Below, in pieces: positions 32,586 through 56,652 of a stretch of 64,000 bases of DNA. Source of the stretch: Paralvinella palmiformis (Eukaryota > Annelida > Polychaeta > Terebellida > Alvinellidae). The stretch covers positions 2,098,501 to 2,162,500 of the forward strand of contig JAODUP010000012.1 of NCBI GenBank assembly GCA_025642065.1, read 5' to 3'. The position numbers and the translations under genes are program-made. How positions within the stretch are numbered: position 1 is the first letter of the stretch; every line of letters begins with the position of its first letter. The notes under the pieces are model-generated. The model saw only the letters and a program-made list of their open reading frames with translations. It made no database searches and was not told the origin of the DNA.

Positions 32586-33175
32586 TTAATCGTAACAAAC
32601 AGAACTGGCGATCTCTATGGCTACGTCGCTCAGGACATCGAAGTTGTTCGCCTTAAAATAGTACAAACTGTTCGATATGATGCTCAGGATTTCGTTCTCG
32701 TTTATGTTGTAGGTAACCCCAACACCCATGATGCTGACGGACTCGTTCCGGATCTTGGCAGCCGTCGGTAGCAATAATTCCGGATCACCTGTGTTCTCGC
32801 CGTCAGTAATCAGTATCATCAGGTCTCTGGCGTTTGGCCGATTTCCGCCTTTACCTTTGGCTATCAGTTCCCGTTCGGCGAGAAGCAATCCGCCTGTTGT
32901 GTTGGTGCTGTAGCCCATGAAGGGGAGGTCCAAGACCGCCTTTATAACCGCTCCGTAATTTGATCCGTATTTTTTAAAGTCGAAGTCAAGTCGGGCCTCG
33001 TTCGAAAAGGTGACGACAGCAAATCGCATATCGGCGTTCTCCTTGGCCAGGACCAAATCGATTACTCGCACAATGAAGTTAAGGATCTTCTTCCAGTTAT
33101 CCGTATTGTCATCGATGTTCGTATCCCGAATGCTACCCGAACTGTCGACCACGAATATGATATCCATAACACAAC
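32586..33175 (-). CDS. Gene B terminal exon (VWA domain)
   Basis: 590 nt, acceptor TGTGTCAG|GT, phase 1; opens CVMDIIFVVDSSGSIRD and ends SSVCYD-stop. MIDAS motifs DSSGS, NTTGG and TDGE are present, so divalent-metal ligand binding is plausible. Same length and end as the gene A terminal exon. Confidence 0.9.
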
Positions 33176-35472
33176 CTGACACAACAAGAACAATTAGAAA
33201 TGGCGTTCCTCATAGACATGGGGTCAATTCAATTCTGGAATTGACATTGACCATCAATTCCAAAATTGGAATTAATTGTTTAAAAAAATAGCATTGGAAT
33301 TGATAAATTTTGAATTGAAAAAACACAAATTAATTAACCATAAATGTTTCTTCCATGACAATTCTACTTGGAATATATGTTAAGTATTCCAAGTAGGTAC
33401 TCGGGAGTACCTACTCATGGTAAAAAGTAGTAGGTAAAAAAGAATTGGTAAAAAACGGAATTGGAATCGATACATTTGGAATTCGAATTGATAAATTGGA
33501 ATTGACCAAATGGAATTGATTCGAACAGACCGATCCAGACGAAATGCGTTGCGTCGGTTACCAACTGCGGTTTCGGGTTAGAAACAGCTGTGGCGCCCAC
33601 TGTTAACAGGGGCTGGCTCCTTTACACTAACGATAAATACTGGAAATCTTTCAGCAAATTATTTCATATTATACGGAGACTGAGACTAGTATTTCAGCCG
33701 AACGATTGCGTCTTTCCAAAGGATTTAATACAATATTTATCAAGACATAAGCCAATTATTCAGCGGACCGATCGTTCAGATGAATGACACAACTAGTTAT
33801 TCATGCTGACTTGTAGCAGATGTTTTAGCATGGGTTTCAATGTATTAAATAAATTGATTTTAAAATTAAAAGTTTAGCTGAATGTAAATTGATTTTAATG
33901 AAGATTAAAAAAAGTTTTGGAAATGTTATTTTTATTTATACCTGGGAACCAATAATATACGCATCACCTGTATATTATTAAATAAAAAATATTTTTACAT
34001 TAGAATATCGGTTATTCTTGCCTTCGCATATGGTGTTGGTTCGAGGCTGGTCAGCCGTGGTTACTTCATGCATGTTCCATCGATAAAATATGGATTTTGT
34101 TAAATGATAGAAGCAGAATAGTACATGAACGTGTTCACCAAATACAGACACAACAGCAAGTTCAACACACTACGTTCAAAGTATACAATAACTGTGGATG
34201 GATCACATTCTGCTGCCTCAAGAACATTTAATAAGGTTTGCTAGGTTGTCTGGGTTTTTCTTTGAAGGAGACCATATGCTAGTGGTTGGAAGAGATTGTC
34301 GACTAGTCCCTCGATAACATAGAGTTGAGCGAATAAGTGAGGTGCAACAGAGAAGGTACCGTCCATACACCAAGTCTCACAAGATGTCAGGTGGCAGAGA
34401 TGTTCTCTGGTTGCAAACACTAGGATGCATTCATCTGCTTCGGGTCCATTGTCATAATGAAGGAAATTGATTGGATTCTCGCCGACTGTTTGAGCAAATA
34501 TAATTTTTTCGCCAAAATGTCCTATCTTCCAAAAAATAACTGGCCGAAACGTCCTAGGTCAAAACGTCCGCTGGCCAAAACGTCATAGATTCGGTAAAAG
34601 CATGTCGTGTTTCTTAATCGCTCGAAATTTGGAAAAGATAACACATCAATGATTTGCTTACCAAAATTATTCAGATCATCCTCTGAAACTGCTGAGCACT
34701 TAACACGCATATAAACATCAGTGTCTATGTTTTCTTTCAGGCTTGTTAGGAAATCCTTGACATGTATTGAACAATGTTGCTTATTCCTGACGAATTCGAA
34801 CCCAACACAACTCGTCATCGCTAGGCAGTGATCTTTGCATTTATCTACGGTGTGTATGCCAGACACCGTGCGTCCATTCCCAACCATATCCGGAATCTTC
34901 TCAAAAACGTCATGGCAACCTGAAGAAAATATCGGTTAGTTGAAGAAAAGGACAAAACATATTTAGCTGATTAAAGACCACATAACAAGTGTACACAAAT
35001 ACATATCCATTTGGGAATTATTAACTTTTACGATTCCCATTATTATGAACAATAATATACTACTCCATATTATTTACACAGTTATACGCTTATAGTATAT
35101 TGTATATCTGCAGATTCGGACAATCCATTTCTCTGGATACATCACAACCAATCAAGGGATAGGCCGCACGAAACAGCAAAACCATAAACAATTCTGCAAT
35201 AGTTTCTTATTATTGTGCTTATAATAAATGATTCATTTATTTTGTTCACAAATTCAAGTGCAAGTTTAGCATGTAAATTGAATTCGTTTGGAAAACACGA
35301 AGTCAGAGAATCAAAACCTTATTTTTGGTCATTCCGGAATTTAAATAAGACAATCATGTATCACACACACACAAACTTACACAGTCATGTATCAGCCCGA
35401 TGCAGAGCACACACGCAAGCACAGACACACAAACAAACACAAGCATGCACAAATACATAAGCACACACACAT

Positions 35473-35527
<55 letters not shown>

Positions 35528-38500
35528 CTACATGCTTGATAATATATTATTCCACAATTGAAAAGCTTTTGTCTACCGGTACGTTATGACTAATCTTCCA
35601 CCATAAAATTTGAATACCTGTCTCAGCCTTTCTGCGCCGTTAATGATCTGACTGTCTCTGTGTCCATTTGGCAGCGACACCAGACTCACAACTTTCAAAT
35701 AACACTAGATACAATGTATACTATTGGTATTGACTGACACAGTATGATTTTAGTGAAATACCATGTAGATACTTTTGCTTTCAGCTTCAATTAGATTAAA
35801 AGATCAAATCAAATGTCATTAACTTAACAATATGATGCTGCAATTTGGTTTTGAATAGTTACCATATAAATATTATTGAAACTTTGAATTTAAAATCACG
35901 GGAAATCATTCACATGGAGAACGAAGCTAGTGAGTGTATTTGGAGGCAGATGCTCCTTATGATGATCTGTTTAATTTAATTTCAGATAAATTGATACTAT
36001 CACGATTTTATTTCGCAATTAATTTAGTTTTTGGCTGATTCCAACTGAGACTATTACAACTTGCATTAACAATAATAATAATAGCCTAAATGGCATTTGG
36101 CTTAGCTAACTCAAGTGAGGGAGACGCATATTGCCTGTAATTTACTGCTTCACAACGAAGACTAATTCAAAACGAATATAGAATAGATGGTATATTCGGC
36201 GGAGAAAACCTTGCCAGTTGCCTGACAGGATGAAAAACTCCCCCTACTATAGTGCTGGGGGCTGGACTTAGACCTCCGACCTCCCGCACAGCATGACCAT
36301 GAGTAAGAAAATCGCACCCTCAAATTCATGAAGCCAAAGAGGTAACAGTATTAAAATGGATAAATTATAACCTGGATTGACACATATATCCTTTGTTAGG
36401 GTAGAGATAACCGTATCTCGACCACATCCATTTGCTCGCTGAGCAGCTCCTGGTTTAATTATTATCCATATGATACTAGTTCCACGTGGTGTGTCTGATT
36501 AACCATCAAACAGTAGCTGATTCAGTTTTGGCAACCATCCATTGACAGCTCCCTATCTACTCCCATGTTAATGTCTGCCGAACTGAAGCAATTGTTATAT
36601 GCGTTTTGGAAGAAATTCTTCAATAACAATCCTAGAATTAGATAGAAGTGTCTGGCGTGGTTCTAGAATTTGACGAACTATTAGAGTTCGAAGTCGATGA
36701 GATAATTGTGAGATAATCTATTTATGAATTTGGTGCTATAAATGCAGGTTATCAATTATGTTATTTTGTACGCACGGAGAGCTTTGGGCCTAGATTGATG
36801 TCTGTATTAAATTTTTTGGTGAGTGTGGGGGGGGAACGGTAGTGTGAATTAATAAGGAAGCTACCACTGAATCAGCCATATGCCAATTCATATAAACGTT
36901 TAATCCGAACCGAGAGAATTACAAGCGAATAAACTAATAAGTCAAATGATACTTGCTTTCGATTGGGCATTCTTTTTCAAACCGTAAACAACAAGAGTCG
37001 GGTTTTCTCCATTCTACCACCTGATGTTTGATACACTCGTTATTTTTTCTGTTATAATCTACTGCCTGACATTGGGGATCTTTGGTACATATGTCAGCAC
37101 ATGCTAGAGCATTGGGTACCTGGCCAACATTATATCCACCGTTCGAATTGTGTTCACGATACTCGAATATTCCACAGGCTGAATATGTAAGGTAAGAATA
37201 GAAAAAAATTACAACAACCATTACTCAAACATTTTTACAATTAATATGCAGTTCATCTAAACACACACGCACGCACACGCACACACATACTGTCATATTT
37301 GCACATATATACGCGTGCGCACACAAACATTTCTGTTTTAAGATTTTGTGTTTGTTTGATGTTTTACAGTCACTTTTGTGCAGAAACTAGGCTAAATGGG
37401 CCGCTCGACCTCCAAAGGTAATGTCAATGATGAGAGACCCTTCAGGCATACCCACACCGAGATCTGAACTCAGGTGGTTGAGATCTGTGGTCAACCGCGC
37501 TACCAGTTAGACCATGGAGGCACCCCATTTGGGTTGTAAGAAAACTGTTGATTACGTGTTTGACGTCTGGGAGTGTTGAGCAGAGGAGAATTAAATAAAT
37601 AAATAAAGAAACAAACATGCAGGTAGACAGGTAGGCAGATCGATAAACAAACAAACAAACAAACCCCAAAACAAATACTTACCTGGTTTAAGAATAGTGC
37701 ACACCACACGCAAGTAGGCATCACTGTACTTGAAAGGCGTGAGACTGCTGACAAAATCCATCCTGTACGTCCGACAACGACTAAGGCGCTCGATGAAGTC
37801 GAACCCACGACAGTTTCTGTCAGCTAAACAATATTCTTTGCAATGAGCTAACGTGCTGACGTCATCAACTCGTTCTGCATATTTCGATATCATCCCCTTT
37901 ATTTTCTCGAACTTATCCCGGCAAGCTTAAAAAGGAACAAAAAATGAAAGAAAACACCCTTTTTTTCGAATCGGACCGAAAGGTCATTTCAGTTGACCCA
38001 TTTCGGACAAATCCAAACCAGAAACCGAACGAATAACCCAATCGCCACCTACCGCCATTCGGACAGACCTTCTCAAAGCGGATGCAGCAGGTGTCGTGCT
38101 TTTTGCCCTTCATGTTCGTGTGCATGTAACATTTACGCTCATTCTTCCTATAATCCACTGCTCGGCAGCTGTGGTCCTTGTTACACAAGTCGGCACATGC
38201 GGTGGCGCTTATTACATAGCCAAGGTCCTTTCCGCCTCGGGAACTGTATTCTCGATATTCAAACATTCCACAGGCTTTTAACGAACAGAAAGATGATTGA
38301 ACACAGTGGTTGAGGAAATTAATGAGTGGCTGTTAAACAGGAGTGCAGACAGACGGACATCCAGACACACAGACAGCCAGACACACAGTCAGACAGCCAA
38401 CCAGACAGACAGACACACACAGAAACATAACACAGGAGCATTAATAGTTTCTAGAACAAGTACCCGTGCATATATGCACTTATATATACCTGATTATACA

Positions 38501-38857
38501 CCTATGTATAGAGTGAATATGGGTATACAGAAATGTTAACAGGACTAGTGGATGTATGCAATGATGGATGGATGGATGTAGTGGGTGGAGTGAGAGTGAT
38601 GATATAGAAAGGGATTTAATAGATTAAATTTAAGAAATTAATGTCACATATCTGACTTACCTGCTGTTTCATCATTATGCAGTTCTGAAATTGACCAAGT
38701 TGTGTTTTAAAATAAACGGTTTAAATGAAAAACAATGAAAATGAATATGTAAGAGAATTGATTATTTAAAGGTAGAAAATAAATCGTACACACCTGTTAA
38801 GTAATCTACTTCTGTTATATCAGATGGTGTAACAGACCATAATTAGGTTTTAAATGC

Positions 38858-38926
<69 letters not shown>

Positions 38927-39950
38927 AGTCAGATAGACAGCCAGATAGTTAGGCGGACAAACAGATAGACGAAAACACAGACAGACAGATAGATAGTTAA
39001 ACGGACACACGGACATATATGCATACAATGAGTAGATAAATAGACAGACGTACCGACATATATATAGATAGATAGAAATAACAGAGATTTTTTAAATGTA
39101 GAAAACAAAGCATACACACCTGCCTTATAGCCTGGTTGAGCAGTATTTGATCCTGTAACAGACCATGAGCAAGAATAAGCAAGAATGGTGGAAATAAAGA
39201 TATGTCGTGACGGACAGACAGATGGACCGACGAACGTAGAGAGAGACAGGCAGACATGGTGGATAGTTAAACAGACTGACGGACAGATAAATGGAAAATA
39301 GATGGATGGATGTACAGATGGTTAGATCGATAGCTAGATAGAAGTACCGCAGCATTGAGATAGAGAAACGAGCAAGAGAGCTGATTATTAACATCTAAAG
39401 GGAAAATAAACCCACAAAAAACATACCAGTGATACTACATTAGAATAAAACTATTTATAAACAATGACAGACAATCAGCAACAAACGGGCACACGGACGA
39501 ACAGAAAGCTGATTCAGGCAGATATACGTGGATAAGTGTTTCTCCTGGTAAATACGTTATTGAAGAAAAAACTAAACAAACAGTTAGGAAATATTATAGA
39601 CAAGTGATCCATACCTGTACAATTTTCCCTCCTTAATTTCACAATTGATCAAAACGAACGTTTTCTCATTTGGGCCAACACCACACAACATCTACTACTG
39701 ATTTGGCATACAACATTCAAAGCCATGTTGAACGTTACTACAAACACGCAAGTTACGCTAGATGGCGCAGTCATCGCTGAAATAGTTTAATAGGCGATTT
39801 TTGCGATCGTTACACTTTAGTTGAATGTAGTTAAGTTCAACTTATCAGTGGCTTGCATGTGTCTGCTAAGGACTATAACGGGATAGTTCCATAGACTGAT
39901 GAGTCGTCCGTACGTAATAACAGTGTGCAAGTTTGTGAGTGTAGATTTTT

Positions 39951-40000
<50 letters not shown>

Positions 40001-40765
40001 ACAATTTCAAAAGATGTCTAAGCACAAGAACATCTCGTGTTGTTAATAAAAATCTTTGACGATAATACTTAACATGAAGCGTTTAAAACAATAGACTGGA
40101 CATTAACACGATTAACAAAGTCTGAAAGGTTGTACGTGGGATAAGTACAGAAATGGCGATCTGTTACGTTGCTCGGAAGAGAGCCATCGAGCAGAAGGAT
40201 CAGAAAACGTTAAAAGGGCTGGCTTATACTATGGATTAGATCCATACAGTGACATTTAGGACTCAGTTTTATCCAAATCTGAAACACCTTTTAAAGCAAA
40301 TCACTTAAATGAAGAACAATGGAAATAAATGTACAAACAGATAGGCAAAGAGACAGACAGACAGACTGACGGACGGACAGACGAACAACAACACCAACAA
40401 CACACAAACGCGCGCGCGCACACGTTTGTGTGTGTACGCTCATGAGAAGTATAATTCTGAAAGCGATATACAGTCGTACCCCGTTCTACGTCATTAATAG
40501 GTTCCAAAATCCGTGACGTAACCCTGTTTTTGACGTAAACCGAACGTAATAGATCAAATATCTCTAAAATGCATTTCGATGTCAATAGTTAATTGCATAT
40601 ACATTTTTATTGTATTGTTTTTGTTTAGCTTTTAGAAATTGAGAGATTGAAAGATATTTTAAGAACTTTAATAAATAATCTGATATACCTGTCATATCTT
40701 GTGACTCAAGTGTATCTATATCTGAAACATTTAAAAAAGAAATCACTTAAAGTTTAACAATGGAA

Positions 40766-40810
<45 letters not shown>

Positions 40811-43800
40811 CACACACACAATCACACGCACGCACGCACACGAGACAGCGATAAATGTTCGTCAGATTCAGAATTAGATATGCTGTCTTGCTTCTCGAAA
40901 AGTAACCTATAACTCACACAATATTTTGCTTGTGTGTGTTATTTCTATACTCTTACTTGTTGTGTATAGTATAATTTACTGTGTTAGTATTTCGAAGTAT
41001 TTAGCCGTCTTTTAGATTATAGTGGGTTGTGAGGGTTGTGATACGGGTATTTCTTAAAATTTAAGAAATAAACTTATCTACCTGTCGCAGCTTCTAATAT
41101 GGCTGTCTCCACATCTGAAACAGTAGTTTGTTTTAAAAGTAAGTCGTTCAAAAGAAATATAGTGGAAATATATGTACGAACAGACAAACAAACAGACAAA
41201 CTGGTGAGAAATTATACATGTCCGAGTAAGAAAAGTCCCATCTTTGTATGTACCCTGATGAATCGTTTATATCGTTTGTATTCACGATTCGAGATTTGTT
41301 ATGCTAGTACCTTATTCCATACTACTAAAACTCACACACAGGTACAAAAATAATAGTTTTCAGAACAAATATAACCAGATATATACATATTACGTTCGAT
41401 TAAAACACAAACCAGAACATTAAAGATTTTATACGTTGACAGAGCTGAATATAAACCTAAGCCACACACTAGCTACTCACCAGTCAATGGACAATTCTTT
41501 TCAAATCGTACACAACAATTGTTGGGCTCCCTTCGCTCCTTCGAGTCGTGTTTCACACATTGTTTCGTCTCTTTGTGATAATCAATAGCTTCACAGTCCG
41601 GATCACTCTTACAGGATTTGGCACACGCCAACAAATCCGTGGTAGTGGAATTGTGTTCTCCGAACATAGAAAAGTAGCCATCATATTCGACCATGTTACA
41701 TTCTGAATGAACGGAAACATATTCGGACAAATTAAAGCAAAGTGGTTCATTGGTGTTTAACAGAGAGAATATTCTGCCATCTTGTGCTCAATTTTCACGC
41801 ATTGGTCCATTTACAGTGAGAATACGTTAATCCGACAAAGTTTGTCACATGATAATATGTCGGATACACGTTAATGTCGGAATGTCGAGCCCGTGACATA
41901 CCGGTAGTCTGTGTCACACACTTTTATATCATAAAGATATGCCGTTTGATGAAGAAAAAAACCCCGCAACATCCACTGGAACCACCATAACACTTATAAT
42001 CTCACGGTCTATTTATATATACTCGTATCACTTAGTACATAATTTCATGTACTGAAGAAACTATCCAGTATTGTATCGTATCGGATAGTGTTACTATTTT
42101 TGAAATCATTATACAAAAGGCTTTGATTAAAGTATTAGAGAAATACAATGACGATATCAATAAAGCACATAATAATTTCTTGGAAATAAACTGGCCTAAT
42201 ATGAAAATCACAGTGAACCTGACATCTAAAGTACTATATATCTGATATGAAAAACATTGAACTTTCTTATATAATGTAGATGCGTTTTAGGAGCAAATAG
42301 TAATACATCAGAGTATTTATAAATTCCACCCAGAATATATCGTATAAAATGTGTTATATTTATATAAATAAAAACGAATGTCTATGTCTCGCAAAGAATT
42401 CTGGAAAAAGAGTGTCTTAAATAGTGGTGAATATGACATTGGGTGGATATATGATTGGGACTATGATGTCGGGTGATGACCACTATGTTGGCAATATCCA
42501 TGTCAGTGGTGTCCATCATGTATTTTGTTTTCATGGTTTTGAATGAATAAGAAGCATGCGATTCGATGTTTCGGCAGCTGCTTTTCAGTAGCGGAAGTAT
42601 TATTCATTGCGCCGATGGGTGAATATCAGCGGCTGCTTACTTGTATGCCGCCGATATAGCGAAAACGGTGCTGCCATCTGTTCACCAAATGACGAATAAC
42701 TCGATCTGGATAGGGAACTATTAAAAAAAATTTGATCCCGACCAAAAGAAAACCACTGAAATATGTCTAATTAATGGCTGCATTTGTGCTATATGTTATC
42801 ATTAAACTGTCACGTGTATCATAATTGTCGTATATAAAATTCTGCACCTGAAATATACACTTCTTTGTTATTTGAATTGTAAGTGTCAAGGTTTAAGACA
42901 AAATGGCACTGCTATAACACAATCACTTTTAATGTCACTGTTATAACATCAACATGGGATAGCAGTATATAGAGCTCTAGCATAACACTTACGACACCGA
43001 ATGGCTTAAATTGTACCGATGTGCCGTTATACAACATTCATCCATCTAGCATATCATTAATAACATTCACACAGAATAATGACATCTATTTTGTTAATGA
43101 AAAACTTCAATTAGTTAGCAAATGGTGTACAAGGACTGACACTTCCATTGTAGTATATTTGTATTAAATAAGAAATTCAAAATTTTTCTCCAATCACAGT
43201 ATTATATGATAAATAATCATAGAAATTTAACAGAACTAAAGATAACAAACGTTTAAACTAGTTATTACGTTGACGGGTCTTAGTCGATCACGAACGACAG
43301 CTAGATCTATGAAATCCGGAGTTAAGGCTTGTTAAATTACTGATATTGGACAGGGATGATATGGGTGTCTTCGATGGTAGTCTTCAGGAGTATACTGCTA
43401 AAAAGTGATACTTCATTATCCTCCCACTAGGAACGTTATTATGGATTCTATAAAGTCAATGTCTGAATGAATGAAAGGGTGGCTATCTGGTAGTTTCCCC
43501 AGTAAGTGTATTCCCCAGTGGAAGACAAAGAACATAAACTGACTGTTGGTAGGTCGTGCGAGTGGCTAGTAGAGTTCGCAGTATGTGGTTGTGTTGGCGC
43601 CTGGTACCAGCATCTGCTGTGATAACGATTACAGGCAAGCTGCTGCACAATAGTCGGTGATGAATTTTAAAGAACAATGTGACATATCTTATGTACCTTC
43701 GTGTGTACAAAGAGTTTCACATGAGATTAACACACATCGCCCCGACGCTTGAAGTGCTAAGTGTGATGTGGAACGTTGCACTTGCTCTATTGTTTGAATG

Positions 43801-46800: not shown

Positions 46801-47379
46801 GACGCCGGCAATGAGGTGGGGGTGTTAGCTCATCTCTGCGTATATCCTGTCATATGATAAACAACCAATTACTGAATTAGAGGAAGCCGTCGTTGACCTT
46901 CTCGCCGCCAACGACGACGACAGGAAGACGGTCCAGATTGGCTCTCATCCTGAATCTTATCGTTTGTGAAGTGCGTGATTTCTAATAGCCAGATAGTGAA
47001 CGGTGAAACGGCTTGTGTGTGTGTTCCTTAACAAATATTGTTTGTTGTTATTGCTTTGTGTATGTTGTGTGCGTGTGTTCCTTAAACATTTTGTTTTGTT
47101 GTTATTTCATGCTCCATTTTATTTATGTGGCGAATATCCGTGCACTTTAATTTGTACACAATCATTAGTGTGAAGTTATTGATAAAATACTGCTTTATTT
47201 GGAGAGTTTGGAAAGATTCTAGTCATTTATGTGCGGGCACGATTATCTGTAAATATTTAGTTCCGACAGCTGCTCACTGTGCTGCTGCTATCAACCCTAA
47301 AACGTAAGTGTAGTTTATAGTGTCTCATATCATGTGTCAATACGTTGTTTGTCAAACTAGTCCGTATCATCTCATATCA

Positions 47380-47427
<48 letters not shown>

Positions 47428-48737
47428 TATATTCATTGTAAACGCGAACAGTAACGACTACTAATAGATCTAAATATTTACATGTCGGGGGACACGCACA
47501 CACACACACACACACACTGTATAAACCTCTCTGCATCTTTAAAATGGCAATATACCACATATTATTGCTATTACTATTGTTATATTGTCAGACGTGACAT
47601 TGGTTTGATTTGTTCATTAGACAAACAAGAAACAAATAAAATACCAGCAATTAATCTGGGTCAGATCAGTTTACTAATAATAGATTCGGACACGTGTATG
47701 GTTACCATGACGATGTCAGATCTGACACGTTACCCAGACATACGTTATTAGCGCCAATACATAAGATATAAACATTATCTTATTAACGCCGTAACGGGGG
47801 TCTTATCAATATTTTATATATTCAATTTGCTTTTAACAAATCTCTAATATTAATTGTTTCGTAATGTTTTCTTTCTTTTAATACCGACATACTTGCGTAA
47901 CAAGTTTTTCAACAGACATTTAAAGAATACACACACACACACACACACACAATAATATGTTATTGCTACAATACACAATATGTTATTGCTACAGTAATTA
48001 ATCATTTCATAATTAAACTTGTATGGATTTTGTGTTGTTTCATAATAAAATATATAATTATGTCTATTGACTATTCATTTTGGAATGTTTTTAATGTTAT
48101 GTTAGGGGGGTGGGGTGGTGATTATATAAGCAATGCTTCAAACATCCTCCTTTTTAGCATTCTATGTGTTTGCTTTCATTAAAATTGTGTATTAAGAAAC
48201 TTATGTATTATGAATGTTGAAATAAATGAATTAAATTGAATTAGTTTTGAAGAAGAAAAAAACCCAGCATACACACACACACACTTGTGCAAACAAACAC
48301 ACTATCACAAACAAATAGCTAAAAATGAAAACAAAGGAACAAAGCCCCAGCAAAGTAAGTGTACAAATCTAACTTACTAGTATAATTATCCTGGAGAGAG
48401 CCTGAAACAAAAAGAATATAATCTGTAAATTATCTAATACTTCCACAATTCCGAAGGAATCTATGTCATGAGATAGATTACGTGGTGCACAAGAGAACAC
48501 ACACACACGCGCGAGCGCGCGCATAATGTGTACACTATGATCATGATGATGAAGGGATAAACAGAAAGTACTGTGATACATTGGTAATCTACCGATTGAC
48601 TTTTGATAACAAGCTAAATAGTAAATGCATTCAAACACAGATAATGTTCTGTTCAGACATCTTCACTTACCCATTGAGTGGCTGACGATATGAATTAGCA
48701 CCAGCAACAATTCCTGAACTGTTCTAATTCGATACAT
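32586..48737 (-). CDS. Gene B: secreted PAN/apple-VWA protein with microexon linker
   Basis: Model, complement of: 48671-48737, 48378-48401, 41481-41702, 41082-41114, 40689-40721, 39120-39152, 38794-38811, 38661-38684, 38053-38274, 37683-37925, 36957-37178, 34662-34919, 32586-33175. It sums to 1989 nt, or 662 residues. Every intron is phase 1. Order: signal peptide (1-22), short linker, PAN-a module (31-104), microexon linker (105-151), PAN-a/PAN-b (152-306), PAN-a/PAN-b (307-466), VWA (467-662). Known: PAN/apple modules bind proteins or sugars; VWA domains bind ligands through a metal site, here with DSSGS, TNTTG and TDG intact. Inferred: an extracellular adhesion, matrix or immune-recognition protein. 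Odd points: a GC donor after 36957, and the first PAN-a lacks its PAN-b partner. I know no named family with this order. Which microexons are used needs RNA data. Confidence 0.82.
33222..33525. repeat. AATTGGA/TCAATTCC-rich low-complexity block
   Basis: Repeated GGAATTGA and TCAATTCC words in both orientations over 300 bp, with a TTCCAAGTAGG hairpin-like region at 33378-33415. It abuts the truncated element at 33525. Confidence 0.55.
33525..34010. mobile_element. Partial copy of the 16.5 kb element
   Basis: GACCGATCCAG...CTGGAAATCTTTCAGCAAAT...CACCTGTATATTATTAAATA matches 16719-17130 in the same orientation at roughly 80-85% by eye. Both outer termini are missing. It lies in the last intron of gene B. 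Confidence 0.8.
34490..34590. repeat. CCAAAACGTCC-type iterations
   Basis: Four spaced variants of GCCAAAACGTCC within 100 bp just downstream (minus sense) of the PAN-b 3 exon. Resembles subterminal repeats of a small DNA element; compare 48907-49103. Confidence 0.45.
34662..34919 (-). CDS. Gene B exon PAN-b 3
   Basis: 258 nt, phase 1-1, acceptor TTTTCTTCAG|GT, donor TTTTG|GTAAGC. Six Cys in the PAN-b pattern: CHDVFEKI, KCKDHC, SCVGFEF, QHCSIH, YMRVKC. Confidence 0.86.
35455..35522. repeat. (CA)n(GA)n microsatellite
   Basis: Compound dinucleotide tract in the gene B intron between PAN-a 3 and PAN-b 3. The remainder of this 2 kb intron shows no recognisable exon. Confidence 0.95.
36957..37178 (-). 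CDS. Gene B exon PAN-a 3
   Basis: 222 nt, phase 1-1, acceptor ATATTCAG|CC. The donor must be GC (GAAA|GCAAGT) to keep the 222 nt length and phase 1; the nearest GT gives phase 2. Opens CGIFEYREHNSNGG and contains DSCCLRFEKECP. Confidence 0.86.
37355..37526 (-). mobile_element. tRNA-derived SINE, best-preserved copy
   Basis: The minus strand starts GGGGTGCCTCCATGG, then box A-like TGGTCTAACTGGTAGCG and box B-like GAGTTCAGATCTC, then a body and the tail CTGCACAAAAGTGACTGTAAAAC. It lies in the gene B intron between PAN-b 2 and PAN-a 3. Confidence 0.75.
37683..37925 (-). CDS. Gene B exon PAN-b 2
   Basis: 243 nt, phase 1-1, acceptor CCTTTTTAAG|CT, donor CCAG|GTAAGT. Six Cys: CRDKFEK, HCKEYC, RNCRGFDF, SRCRTY, YLRVVC. 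The C-x3-C and GF/FDF pattern is that of a PAN/apple domain. Confidence 0.87.
38053..38274 (-). CDS. Gene B exon PAN-a 2
   Basis: 222 nt, phase 1-1, acceptor GTTAAAAG|CC, donor GGCG|GTAGGT. Opens CGMFEYREYSSRGG; Cys pattern as PAN-a 1, with DTCCIRFEKVCP. Confidence 0.88.
38661..38684 (-). CDS. Gene B microexon m5 (24 nt)
   Basis: GGTCAATTTCAG|AA...ACAGCAG|GTAAGT. Phase 1-1, encodes LHNDETA. It lies just before the second PAN-a exon. Confidence 0.6.
38794..38811 (-). CDS. Gene B microexon m4 (18 nt)
   Basis: GATATAACAG|AA...TTAACAG|GTGTGT. Phase 1-1, encodes VDYLT. The m3-like acceptor upstream (GGTCTGTTACA) has lost its AG, so the exon seems to have shrunk to a new acceptor. Confidence 0.5.
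38863..38924. repeat. (AT)n microsatellite
   Basis: About 30 AT units in the intron between m3 and m4. Confidence 0.95.
39120..39152 (-). CDS. Gene B microexon m3 (33 nt)
   Basis: GGTCTGTTACAG|GA...AAGGCAG|GTGTGT. Phase 1-1, encodes SNTAQPGYKA. The intron after it (TAGAAAA, ACACACCTG on the plus strand) resembles that after m4. Confidence 0.55.
39953..39993. repeat. (AT)n microsatellite
   Basis: AT tract between the microexon relic and m3. Confidence 0.95.
40246..40278 (-). pseudogene. Relic of a gene B microexon
   Basis: The acceptor GTGTTTCAG|AT and LDKTES match m1/m2, but TAA follows in frame and the donor position lacks GT. It has the same upstream intron words as m2. A decayed duplicate. 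Confidence 0.6.
40689..40721 (-). CDS. Gene B microexon m2 (33 nt)
   Basis: AATGTTTCAG|AT...ATGACAG|GTATAT. Phase 1-1, encodes IDTLESQDMT. Flanking intron words (AAATCACTTAAA, ACAATGGAAA) recur beside the unit at 40.28 kb. Confidence 0.6.
40760..40814. repeat. (CA)n(GA)n microsatellite
   Basis: Compound tract beside microexon m2. Confidence 0.95.
41082..41114 (-). CDS. Gene B microexon m1 (33 nt)
   Basis: ACTGTTTCAG|AT...GCGACAG|GTAGAT. Phase 1-1, encodes VETAILEAAT. Similar to m2 in length, phase, acceptor sequence and the -T-G end. Confidence 0.6.
41481..41702 (-). CDS. Gene B exon 3 (PAN-a module 1)
   Basis: 222 nt, phase 1-1. Eight Cys in the order C...C-x3-C-x5-C...C...CC...C with the signature NNCCVRFEKNCP shared by all PAN-a exons. 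Acceptor TTCATTCAG|AA, donor ACTG|GTGAGT. No PAN-b exon follows it, unlike the other two. Confidence 0.85.
43700..44290 (-). pseudogene. Non-LTR retrotransposon reverse transcriptase relic
   Basis: In shifting minus-strand frames: SGFPQGTVLGP (about 44240-44275), FADD catalytic box (44172-44183), LNGLKC, YLAVTIDAKSSWQPHV and LVRPTLEYA. These are successive blocks of a jockey/CR1-like reverse transcriptase, broken by frameshifts. Lysine/arginine-rich frames up to about 45.2 kb may be its upstream part. It lies in gene B intron 2, same strand. Confidence 0.75.
46530..46695. repeat. ~160 bp duplicated segment, copy 1
   Basis: CACTTGTGCAAACAAACACAC through AAAAAGAATATAATCTGTAAATT is repeated in the same orientation at 48275-48432 with few differences. 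The unit carries gene B exon 2. Confidence 0.85.
46640..46658 (-). pseudogene. Duplicate of gene B exon 2, frame-breaking
   Basis: Same intronic flanks and splice sites as exon 2 (GTTTCAG|TC...ACTG|GTAAGT), but 19 nt long instead of 24 because of a 5 nt difference, so inclusion would shift the frame. Either dead or a regulated poison exon. Confidence 0.5.
46960..47745 (+). pseudogene. Trypsin-like serine protease remnant inside gene B intron 2
   Basis: Three pieces in order on the plus strand: SNSQIVNGETA near 46982-47012 (activation-site type IVxG), HLCAGTIICKYLVPTAAHC around 47224-47280 (the TAAHC box with catalytic His), and RRDIGLICSLD from 47592 (DIxLI box with catalytic Asp), then a CMVT segment. 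The His piece ends AAAAC|GTAAGT (phase 2) and the Asp piece starts TTGTCAG|A (phase 2), so they can splice. Against function: Gln instead of Arg/Lys before IVNG, only about ten residues between the His and Asp boxes instead of roughly forty, and no GDSGG exon found in the following kilobase. Probably a broken gene copy. Confidence 0.6.
47384..47423. repeat. (AT)n microsatellite
   Basis: AT tract between the His and Asp pieces of the protease remnant. Confidence 0.95.
48275..48432. repeat. ~160 bp duplicated segment, copy 2
   Basis: Partner of the segment at 46530-46695; contains the in-frame 24 nt exon. Confidence 0.85.
48378..48401 (-). CDS. Gene B exon 2 (24 nt microexon)
   Basis: TTTTTGTTTCAG|GC...TACTA|GTAAGT. 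Phase 1 in and out; encodes about eight residues (SLQDNYT). A duplicate lies at 46640. Confidence 0.6.
48671..48737 (-). CDS. Gene B exon 1 (signal peptide)
   Basis: ATG at 48737-48735 encodes MYRIRTVQELLLVLIHIVSHSM, a short basic N-terminus plus hydrophobic core typical of a secretion signal. Donor ATGG|GTAAGT, phase 1, matching all later exons. It is the only candidate start in the right place. Confidence 0.75.
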
Positions 48738-53922: not shown

Positions 53923-54512
53923 TTAAAGGGGACAAACGATGTTTGTGACCTTCCTAGCGGTGATGGCTAACTGGTCAAAGTTGAGAGCCGTAAAATAGTA
54001 CGATTGGTCCGATATCAGACCTCTGATTTCTTCTTCGTTTATGTCCTTCGTCACTCCGACGCCGAGGATGTCGACGGAACGATTTCGAATCCTGGTGGCT
54101 GTCGGCTGCAGCAGCTTCTTGTCATAGGTGGCCACACCGTCGGTGATGAGAATGATCAAGTCCTTGGCCTGTTGACGATTTCCGCCATTCCCGCTGCCGA
54201 GCAAACGTTGTTCGGCGACGAGAAATCCCCCGGTCGTGTTTGTGTTTGATCCCAAGTACGGAATGGATAGGACAGCTTCTGCTATCCTGTTGTATTGGTC
54301 GCCGTATCTGTTGAAGTCGAACTGGAGCTCGCCGCGATCCGAAAATGTTACGACGGCGAATCGCGGATCGGCGTTATCGGTGCCGGCTATCGTGTTGACT
54401 ACTTGCTGCAGAAACTGGAGGATCTGATCCCAGTTGTCCACGTTACCCTCGACATTCTTGTCTCGAATGCTACCCGAGCTATCGACAACGAATATTATAT
54501 CGGAGTCGCAAA
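53923..54512 (-). CDS. Gene A terminal exon (VWA 6)
   Basis: 590 nt, acceptor CTTTTGCAG|TT, phase 1. CDSDIIFVVDSSGSIRDKN, GSNTNTTGG, ILITDGVA; ends NIVCPL-stop. Same length as the gene B terminal exon and closely alike, including SSGSIRD and (M/L)GVGVT. Confidence 0.92.
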
Positions 54513-56652
54513 CTGCAAAAGATTAGAAACGATGCTTAGCCGTAACGGCGAAAACTTACAAATTTCAATGGCAAACACATTCGAGCGGCTACTTACAGGA
54601 CGGAATCGGAGCAGGAGTTGGCGCGGGAGTCGGCGCGGGAGTCGGTGCTGGTGTCGGCGCCGGAGTCGGCACCGTCTCCGCGCATGCTTCTTCAAGGATT
54701 CTGCTCGTCTGGTCTAAGAGTTCATCGAACCGCGCCACCTGGAAGACGTATCTGTCTCCGCTGGCTATTTCTTTCAGTGTGTCGATGTTCACTTTGTCGG
54801 TGACGCCAATAGCAGCGACCAGAGCGGGGAAATCGCGCAGATTACGAGCGGCGATCGGTAGTCGATCCACATCTATGGTCGGGTGGCCATCTGTCAGCAC
54901 GATGACAACATCCCGTATCCAAGCTCGATTGCCCTGTGACATTAGTACTTCATCCCGGACTTTGTCTAAGCCAAGTGCCGTATTCGTGTCCCCGCCTTGG
55001 TAATATTTCGCGATGGTGTTACTGATGGCATTCTTGTAGTCTTCCGCCGTACGGTAGTTGTTTTCGAGGTTGAAGAACACGTTGGCATAGTTGCTGAAAT
55101 CGACGACGGCAGCTCTCACTTGGCTGACATCAATTCGGTCGAAGATTCCCTTCAGGAAGTTCATCATTTCGTTCCAGTTGTTCGCGTTCTGATCTTTAAT
55201 ACTGCCGGAGCTGTCCACCAGTAGAACCATATCAACGGGACAACCTGTCAGAAAGTAACAGATGTGCTGATAGTCAATGTATCACGTATACAAATGAACT
55301 GGGGAGCTACGGCTTCGGTTGATATATAATTAGATATTGTTAGAACAATTTGAAGCGTTGATATTAGATATTAAAACGTGATTATCGTTATGGATTAAAT
55401 GCATTGTTATTCGTTAAAGAAACATAGAGTTTATTTAAATTCCAAATCCTATTCATTCGTCACAATGCCACTTACTTTGACGGTGCGATGCTAGAAGACA
55501 AGCAAGCCTCGTCGAAAGAGCGTATTTGTACGCCTAGCTATACACATACCTGGTTTAGTCAATTGATTTTGGCTTGATCGTGACGAGAGGCCTGCAGACT
55601 ATTGCATACCTGCACGTTTGCCTGCATCGACCTTGGTACAGTTTGAAGTCGTGCCACATTGGTCCGACTTTAGAAGGTATTTACTTTTATACGACAAAGA
55701 ACCCTTGCCCGTTTCGGGTGTAGAATTGAGCCCACTATATCCTGCAGCATGTCTTCCGATTCCACTAAAAGGAGGTGCCACCAAATAAACACTTATTATG
55801 GATGTTTTGTTACATCATACTCGCTTATTCAACAACGGCCAACGTTTTCACCGTCACCGAGTGACACACAGTTACATCTTACTTCGTCTCAGCACTGGTC
55901 ACGTATGTGACACACAATCTAGGAGCCAGTGCATTGGGCAAGGAGACGATCAGACAGAATATCGTTACAGAAGGATGCAAAACTCACCCGACACAGGTAA
56001 CGCTGGGATTCGAGCAAACTTATGGAGGTCTGTAACACATTAGGATACCGACCACGCTCCCTTCCTGATTTAAGTAATATAATACACATCTTACCAAAGT
56101 CCGTACAAAAAATAGTGTTTGAGCCATACCGTTGACTCCCAGATTTTATAATTTAAACGTTGAAAAGAATCAAAAGCAATTTTTCCAAACTTACCCGATT
56201 CAGCGCGAACATGAAATAGAAGACAGTTAAAAGAAAGTGGAAAAAACTGTGTCTGTTAGAGGACTGAACGTTTCTTTGCGCTTATATCTTAATTTGGTAC
56301 TCCGTTTTAGCTCATTCAATCAAAACGCTGCTTGTTAATAGTGAGTGTTTCGATGTAGGAAAGTTATTGTTTGGAACAAGATGCAAGCAGTATAGAATAA
56401 CTACAGGAAGTAAAGTTATTATTTTATTAAAAATTACAAAAGTCTATTTACAGTATTCAGTATAATCTACCTAGTCATATGTTATATTTTGTCTTACATG
56501 TCTGATTCACGCACTTGGCCAAAATGTACAGAAATACTATTAATTTGCTAAATTCCTAAGTACAATGAATGTAAGAATTGTTACCTGAAGAAAACTATAA
56601 GAAGATAAACGAAGCAAATGACGCAAACAGACGTATAACTTAATCGTTCAAA

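What the first reader, a model, noticed from the sequence alone, without database searches (positions are those of the whole stretch)
38661..41114. Tandem array of 18-33 nt symmetric microexons between PAN modules
Five intact-looking microexons (41082, 40689, 39120, 38794, 38661) all start after two codon-completing bases and end with one base, so each can be skipped without shifting the frame. Three are exactly 33 nt. Two share the GTTTCAG|AT start and similar peptides, and a sixth unit at 40246 has a stop and a dead donor. Recurrent intron words next to them show the array grew by duplication of exon plus intron. This would make a linker of variable length and sequence, a combinatorial splicing device in an adhesion-type protein.
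Basis: partly seen in the sequence, partly recalled or inferred. Interest (0 to 1): 0.78.

Follow-up and report, generated by a model that had tools for sequence, protein, structure and literature searches.

The report
Tandem linker microexons between PAN domains
An unnamed animal's large secreted-type gene has a row of very small, skippable exons, copied in tandem, that would spell the flexible link between two protein modules; related genes nearby and elsewhere in the same genome show the same design, so it looks real, but no RNA data show how it is spliced.

Summary
On the minus strand, between two intact 222-nt PAN exons (41481-41702 and 38053-38274), five intact phase-1 microexons (33, 33, 33, 18, 24 nt) and one broken copy lie in homologous exon-plus-intron units. 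A profile of the units finds no other copy in the window or in the other fetched DNA. Simulated neutral decay rarely leaves 5 of 6 copies intact (0 to 0.0017 in ten settings).

The strongest support lies outside the window. The adjacent paralogue (gene 1) has Thr-rich symmetric microexon candidates in 9 of 15 scanned introns, including a second tandem array of four units; an unlinked paralogue (contig C542) has six more. In both, a single microexon sits at the joint (PAN, then PANa-type exon) that carries the array here. The array is most likely a local expansion of a linker microexon in a gene family that builds linkers from microexons.

The 'combinatorial splicing device' is untested. Symmetry is no evidence for it: the other exons of this gene are phase 1 too. 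Exon interiors are no more conserved than introns. Closest known: schistosome SmPoMuc and micro-exon genes; membership not met.

The parts
48671..48737 (-). possible first coding exon with a signal-peptide-like sequence (MYRIRTVQELLLVLIHIVSHSMG), phase-1 donor TGG|GTAAGT
   Evidence: one of four candidates listed there; weak, not confirmed as part of the gene
41481..41702 (-). PANa1 exon (222 nt, phase 1-1), upstream neighbour of the array
   Evidence: Pfam PF00024 23.1 bits over cut-off 21.4; boundaries
41082..41114 (-). microexon m1, 33 nt, DVETAILEAAT
40689..40721 (-). microexon m2, 33 nt, DIDTLESQDMT; donor GTATAT is weak
40247..40278 (-). m3p, broken microexon copy: acceptor kept, in-frame TAA, no donor
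39120..39152 (-). microexon m4, 33 nt, GSNTAQPGYKA; no near-identical unit elsewhere in the 594-Mb genome
38794..38811 (-). microexon m5, 18 nt, EVDYLT; aligned ancestral acceptor lost, new one used
38661..38684 (-). microexon m6, 24 nt, ELHNDETA; consensus donor CAG|GTAAGT
38053..38274 (-). PANa2 exon (222 nt, phase 1-1), downstream neighbour of the array
   Evidence: (24.1 bits)
37683..37925 (-). PANb1 exon (243 nt)
   Evidence: (27.9 bits)
36957..37178 (-). PANa3 exon (222 nt if the GC donor AAA|GCAAGT is used)
   Evidence: (29 bits)
34662..34919 (-). PANb2 exon (258 nt)
   Evidence: (29 bits)
32586..33175 (-). terminal VWA exon with stop
   Evidence: Pfam PF00092 107.4 bits

Best explanation
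The array is a set of real, very short coding exons that supply the linker between PAN module 1 and PAN module 2 of a secreted-type PAN/VWA protein. It arose when a single phase-1 linker microexon, of the kind that still sits alone at the same joint in two paralogous genes, was duplicated in tandem with its flanking introns. One copy later broke and another shifted its acceptor. If all five intact exons are spliced in, they add a 47-residue linker rich in Asp, Glu and Thr. Because everything is in phase 1, any subset keeps the frame (32 sequences, 0 to 47 residues). I think at least some are optional in practice, with about 45 percent confidence: the acceptors score low on average and the exons are short. 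Shown here: anatomy, homology of units, paralogue design. Inferred: splicing, translation, optional use and linker function.
For: Units are homologous with the introns included. The most conserved six columns of the unit alignment are the acceptor TTTCAG/TTACAG, in all three alignment settings. Five of 6 units still carry a usable phase-1 exon, whereas neutral simulation gives P(>=5) of 0 of 3000 runs in 8 of 10 settings and at most 0.0017. Gene 1, the adjacent paralogue, has Thr-rich symmetric microexon candidates in 9 of 15 scanned introns. All 24 minus-strand candidates of that region, taken without selection, hold 60 Thr of 212 residues, against 24 of 415 on the plus strand of the whole 104 kb and 5 of 78 on the plus strand of the same region. 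Its second array has units 79-81 percent identical for u1-u3. C542 has six Thr/Ser-rich candidates among the 15 on the coding strand. Single microexons lie before the PANa-type exon in gene 1 (ETTTPTIGPI) and in C542 (ATTPGQQPTFSTT), the joint that bears the array in gene 2. m4 shares TAQP with gene 1's APSTAQPT. The array peptides are enriched in Asp/Glu (12 of 47 against 35 of 407, one-sided p 0.001) and weakly in Thr (7 of 47 against 24 of 407, one-sided p 0.03); both residues were chosen after seeing the peptides.
Against: No transcript or protein evidence; no homologue found in the protein collection. Exon interiors are less conserved than flanks in 7 of 8 pairs compared and equal in one, although only 1 of 8 differs at p<0.05, so nothing shows constraint on the peptide. 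The earlier, simpler neutral simulation is less decisive: P(>=4 of 6) is 0.007 to 0.13 at divergence 0.18-0.24, and 0.002 to 0.37 over all settings tried. At stricter scanner cut-offs the array does not stand out. Mean acceptor score is lower in the array (0.8) than in the 14 gene 1 microexons I picked (3.3), though mean donor score is similar (5.0 against 4.7); single array acceptors (-0.8 to 4.5) do overlap those of this gene's PAN and VWA exons (-0.5 to 5.3). m1 and m2 donors lack G at +5. Peptides are not Thr-rich like the paralogues' linkers.
Confidence: 0.72

Rival explanations
1. The microexons are real and all five are always included: a fixed, patchwork linker with no isoform diversity. 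(Shares with the best explanation that the exons are real.)
For: All five intact copies keep sites and frame; m4, m5 and m6 have good donors (6.5, 6.5, 8.6); one of gene 1's single microexons has strong sites (APSTAQPT, 4.6 and 9.3).
Against: Low mean acceptor score and two weak donors in the array. Very short exons are often poorly recognised without helpers (recalled, not tested).
Confidence: 0.35
2. A decaying array: an ancestral linker microexon was duplicated, but most copies are now rarely or never spliced, and PANa1 usually joins PANa2 directly or through m4 or m6 alone.
For: One of six copies is dead and one has lost its aligned acceptor. Exon interiors are not conserved. Three of the other four gene 2 introns scanned yield no microexon candidate; the fourth (37190-37670) yields two overlapping hits at one acceptor.
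Against: In the scanner simulation neutral decay mostly left 0 to 2 intact copies, not 5.
Confidence: 0.2
3. A mutually exclusive or poison-exon switch: one copy is chosen at a time, or inclusion of the broken copy m3p with its stop turns the protein off.
For: [quoted passage not shown] m3p keeps an acceptor and has an in-frame stop. Two (TA)n tracts about 1 kb apart flank m4 and could pair.
Against: Lengths differ (33, 33, 33, 18, 24) and every combination keeps the frame, so nothing enforces exclusivity. m3p has no matching donor. TA/AT tracts are common here.
Confidence: 0.08
4. Chance: one pseudo-exon in intron DNA, copied by tandem duplication and read by eye as exons.
For: Loose microexon-like hits occur about once per 3 kb, and 1 of 35 control tiles reaches the array's count.
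Against: Retention through divergence, the acceptor as conservation peak, and Thr-rich microexon candidates at joints of two paralogues, with 0 such hits on the plus strand of 104 kb (C542).
Confidence: 0.08

Closest known systems
Schistosoma mansoni polymorphic mucins (SmPoMuc), exon 2 array (PMC2576457; passages seen)
   Same: A very short in-frame exon (27 bp there) together with its introns is repeated in tandem, with microsatellites between units, giving a variable segment of an extracellular protein.
   Different: There the units are about 1 kb with introns over 94 percent identical, up to about 20 genomic copies coding 9-residue repeats of a few types, shown in transcripts; here six diverged units (flanks 33 to 74 percent identical in pairs) code different peptides, in a multi-domain PAN/VWA gene, with no transcript evidence.
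Schistosome micro-exon genes, MEGs (PMC10526429; passages including part of the abstract seen)
   Same: Runs of very short exons, mostly multiples of three.
   Different: MEGs consist of 10 to 20 very short exons; here most coding sequence lies in 222 to 590-nt module exons and microexons only link them.
Neural microexons controlled by the eMIC domain of SRRM3/4 (PMC8797185; passages seen)
   Same: Short in-frame exons.
   Different: The UGC motif enriched near the 3' splice site in that class is present in only 1 of 5 intact microexons, and three of five are 33 nt, above the usual size limit of that class (limit recalled).
Tandemly duplicated mutually exclusive exons (PMC9013439; passages seen)
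   Same: Origin by duplication of exon plus intron.
   Different: No equal length and no frame constraint that would force one-only choice; exclusivity not testable here.

Membership tests
Schistosome micro-exon genes (MEG) | gene built mainly of very short exons (10-20 of them) | tested here: not met
   Defined PAN and VWA exons are 222-590 nt; five microexons total 141 nt
Schistosome micro-exon genes (MEG) | short exons mostly a multiple of three | tested here: met
   5 of 5 intact microexons; the broken copy is 32 nt
SmPoMuc-type exon arrays | tandem units of microexon plus intron | tested here: met
   Units homologous with introns
SmPoMuc-type exon arrays | units separated by microsatellites | tested here: inconclusive
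   Tandem Repeats Finder lists a microsatellite (AG, AT or TA) in 3 of the 5 gaps between units (m1-m2, m3p-m4, m4-m5)
SmPoMuc-type exon arrays | near-identical units coding repeats of a few types | tested here: not met
   Exon identity 0.38-0.69 between units
SmPoMuc-type exon arrays | intron-coded hammerhead ribozyme | tested here: not met
   No Rfam match in the 64-kb window at gathering score; upstream loci not searched
eMIC/SRRM4 neural microexons | UGC motif close to the 3' splice site | tested here: not met
   TGC within 30 nt upstream in 1 of 5 intact microexons
eMIC/SRRM4 neural microexons | neural inclusion dependent on the eMIC factor | not testable with these tools
   no RNA data
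Mutually exclusive exons | one and only one exon included | not testable with these tools
   no RNA data; every combination keeps the frame
PAN domain proteins (PF00024) | match over Pfam's curated cut-off | tested here: met
   Five PAN exons at 23.1 to 29 bits, cut-off 21.4

The most novel reading that the evidence does not exclude
A gene family that sets the spacing and chemistry of its extracellular modules through a fast-turning-over set of in-frame microexons: many PAN-PAN joints carry one or more optional linker exons, arrays grow and die by exon-plus-intron duplication, and the linker peptides change at least as fast as their introns, so that one gene yields many spacer lengths and glycosylation patterns.
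Probability: 0.25. Interest if true: 0.75.

Novelty: new variant of a known kind. Interest (0 to 1): 0.56.

Why it matters
Microexon arrays that vary an extracellular protein are known from schistosomes. It gives a concrete, testable case of how linkers between repeated modules are born, multiplied and lost, and of whether exon skipping is used to tune spacing between modules. It also warns that automatic gene models will probably miss these exons.

Tried and rejected
Protein homologues: the joined 632-residue gene 2 product and one PAN exon frame found nothing in the protein collection, so no relative in a named species and no organism could be given. Phage collection: no match. Rfam: none in the window. 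PDB sequence search only confirms domain types (VWA nearest collagen VI alpha 3 and a proximal thread matrix protein; PAN nearest plasma kallikrein and factor XI, weakly). Interspersed-repeat explanation rejected for what was searched: the unit profile finds no copy outside the array in 40 fetched records, 345 kb with overlaps. The genome-wide DNA searches exclude only near-identical copies, since they missed the sibling units themselves; units m1, m3p, m5 and m6 were not searched genome-wide. eMIC class rejected on UGC. Other PAN-rich loci: C1776, C2152 and C15 gave no Thr-rich candidates, C84 gave 3 over both strands and C1895 2, so the design is not general to all PAN genes. C1895 may be a milder case (ATSSPDP, GTTTRAP). 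Paper searches for a parallel gave listings in which I recognised none in a mollusc or other lophotrochozoan outside schistosomes; the lists were capped (12 of 23, 8 of 1,034, 10 of 24). The micro-exon paper by DeMarco 2010 is not held.

Selection to declare: the 14 gene 1 microexons were picked by me; nested hits, hits inside PAN exons and two non-Thr-rich intronic hits (AEVNSPAVSYSTRC, DTFNQNFKT) were dropped. The unselected comparison is that. The six C542 microexons were picked from 15 hits. The splice-site weights in all scans are recalled human-like values, not fitted to this genome.

Full report
What was checked. They lie in a 3.2-kb interval between two 222-nt PAN exons, PANa1 and PANa2. 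The rest of the gene runs PANb1, PANa3, PANb2 and a terminal VWA exon with stop; PAN and VWA are over Pfam's cut-offs. The PAN exons are phase 1 on both sides and the VWA exon starts in phase 1. PANa3 fits 222 nt only with a GC donor. Because phase 1 is the rule of the gene, the symmetry of the microexons is required rather than remarkable.

Homology of units. Exon and flanking intron are shared between units, strongly for m1, m2, m3p and m6 and for m4 with m5, weakly for some cross pairs (the m5-m6 score is no test because the two stretches overlap). A profile of the six finds no further copy in the window, nor outside the array in 40 fetched records of 345 kb with overlaps. Genome-wide, the m2 and m4 units have no near-identical second copy in 594 Mb (m2 also gave a 31-nt microsatellite-type match); those searches are blind to copies as diverged as the siblings. 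This points to local tandem duplication rather than a dispersed repeat.

Real exons or chance? A scanner for AG, open phase-1 exon of 9-51 nt and GT finds about 1.1 hits per 3.2 kb in 35 control tiles of the window and 6 (one nested) in the array; one tile also reaches 6. At stricter cut-offs the array does not stand out clearly (3 hits at acceptor 0 and donor 1, reached by 2 of 33 tiles; 1 hit at 4 and 3, reached by 2 of 33; none at 5 and 4). Since copies inherit an exon, counting is not enough. Simulating neutral decay from an intact ancestor at each unit's own flank divergence (0.21-0.38), 5 of 6 intact copies occurred in 0 of 3000 runs in eight of ten settings and at a rate of at most 0.0017 in the other two. 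A simpler simulation was milder. The best conserved six columns of the unit alignment are the acceptor, in three alignment modes. Exon interiors are no better conserved than introns (up 0.58, exon 0.50, down 0.44 mean identity).

The decisive context is outside the window. Flanking DNA shows that the neighbouring gene, whose VWA exons lie at 54-64 kb of the window, is preceded on the same strand by a PANb, a PANa and 12 further PAN matches plus one weaker one. That all of these belong to one transcript is inferred. The introns between them hold short symmetric microexon candidates of 12-36 nt: ASTT, VITSTATSPT, VTTPS, VTTATLTTA, VTTSS, VTTTTLTTA, ATTSSSTTTITQ, APTTTATKS, then a second tandem array ARDETT, AREVTT, AREVTT, AVTERSTTKP (L009 6336-7297), then ETTTPTIGPI before PANa (L009 2756-2785) and APSTAQPT after PANb (L009 1822-1845). 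Nine of 15 scanned introns carry a Thr-rich one; five have no candidate and one has only a non-Thr-rich candidate. With a Thr/Ser/Pro filter, the minus strand of 104 kb gives 15 hits (two nested, two inside or at the end of PAN exons) and the plus strand 0. Over 170 kb of both strands from this and other PAN loci, 13 filtered hits (two nested) fall on the 20-kb gene 1 strand and 5 on the remaining 320 kb of strand. Thr codons in the 14 picked microexons are ACT 21, ACA 15, ACC 8, ACG 2, so this is no simple repeat.

A third locus. PANa-type exons number five genome-wide at E <= 0.001 with PANa2 as query: three in this gene, one in gene 1, one on contig C542. Around the C542 exon the coding strand shows PAN matches and the microexon candidates AQPSTTA, ATIGTT, ATTRATTTPA, GRTTVSTS, VASSTP and ATTPGQQPTFSTT, the last directly before the PANa exon (15 candidates on that strand in all, 28 Thr of 147 residues; 9 on the other strand, 7 of 84). 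Thus the joint before a PANa exon bears one microexon in gene 1, one in C542 and six units in the given gene. I read the array as an expansion at an old linker-exon site. The array peptides differ from the paralogues in being acidic rather than Thr-rich.

Hints on evolution. In gene 1 a 704-nt block is duplicated at 99.6 percent identity; 2 of its 3 substitutions fall in the 42 nt of microexon and both change the amino acid. Three events prove nothing, but together with the unit comparison they suggest that linker peptides change at least as fast as introns. Five of six array units start with an acidic residue, then V, I or L, then D, E or H, m4 being the exception (sequences).

What it works like and what it is. 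It works like SmPoMuc exon-2 arrays and micro-exon genes of schistosomes in layout, but defining features of both fail (membership table). Functionally I propose linkers of adjustable length; splicing itself, its regulation and the protein's role are inferred. The organism is not identified; a mollusc-like or other lophotrochozoan source is my guess from recalled features only.

Noticed in passing
L009 6336-7297 (minus strand; joined coordinate 70336-71297): Second tandem microexon array in the neighbouring gene: three units 79-81 percent identical (18-nt exons ARDETT, AREVTT, AREVTT) and a diverged fourth (AVTERSTTKP, 30 nt).
   Followed up: partly
L010 3296-4002 and 4042-4748: 704-nt near-identical tandem duplication containing a PAN exon and two microexons; one PAN copy carries two single-base insertions that shift its frame. 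Could be a recent duplication or an assembly artefact.
   Followed up: partly
window 36951-36956, minus strand: PANa3 appears to end at a GC donor (AAA|GCAAGT), i.e. a GC-AG intron.
   Followed up: no
window 32586-33175 and 53923-54522: The two terminal VWA exons, each with its own stop, are 55 percent identical: tandem gene copies, or alternative last exons of one very large gene.
   Followed up: no
window 38861-38924 and 39953-39999: Two long (TA)n tracts about 1 kb apart flank microexon m4 and could pair in the transcript.
   Followed up: no
window 47086-47307, plus strand: Reading frame resembling a trypsin-like serine protease piece (CAGT...TAAHC; motif recalled) on the opposite strand, inside the presumed first intron.
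   Followed up: no
L019-L020 (contig C1895): Another multi-PAN gene with ten PAN match regions and two or three possible Thr/Ser-rich microexons.
   Followed up: partly
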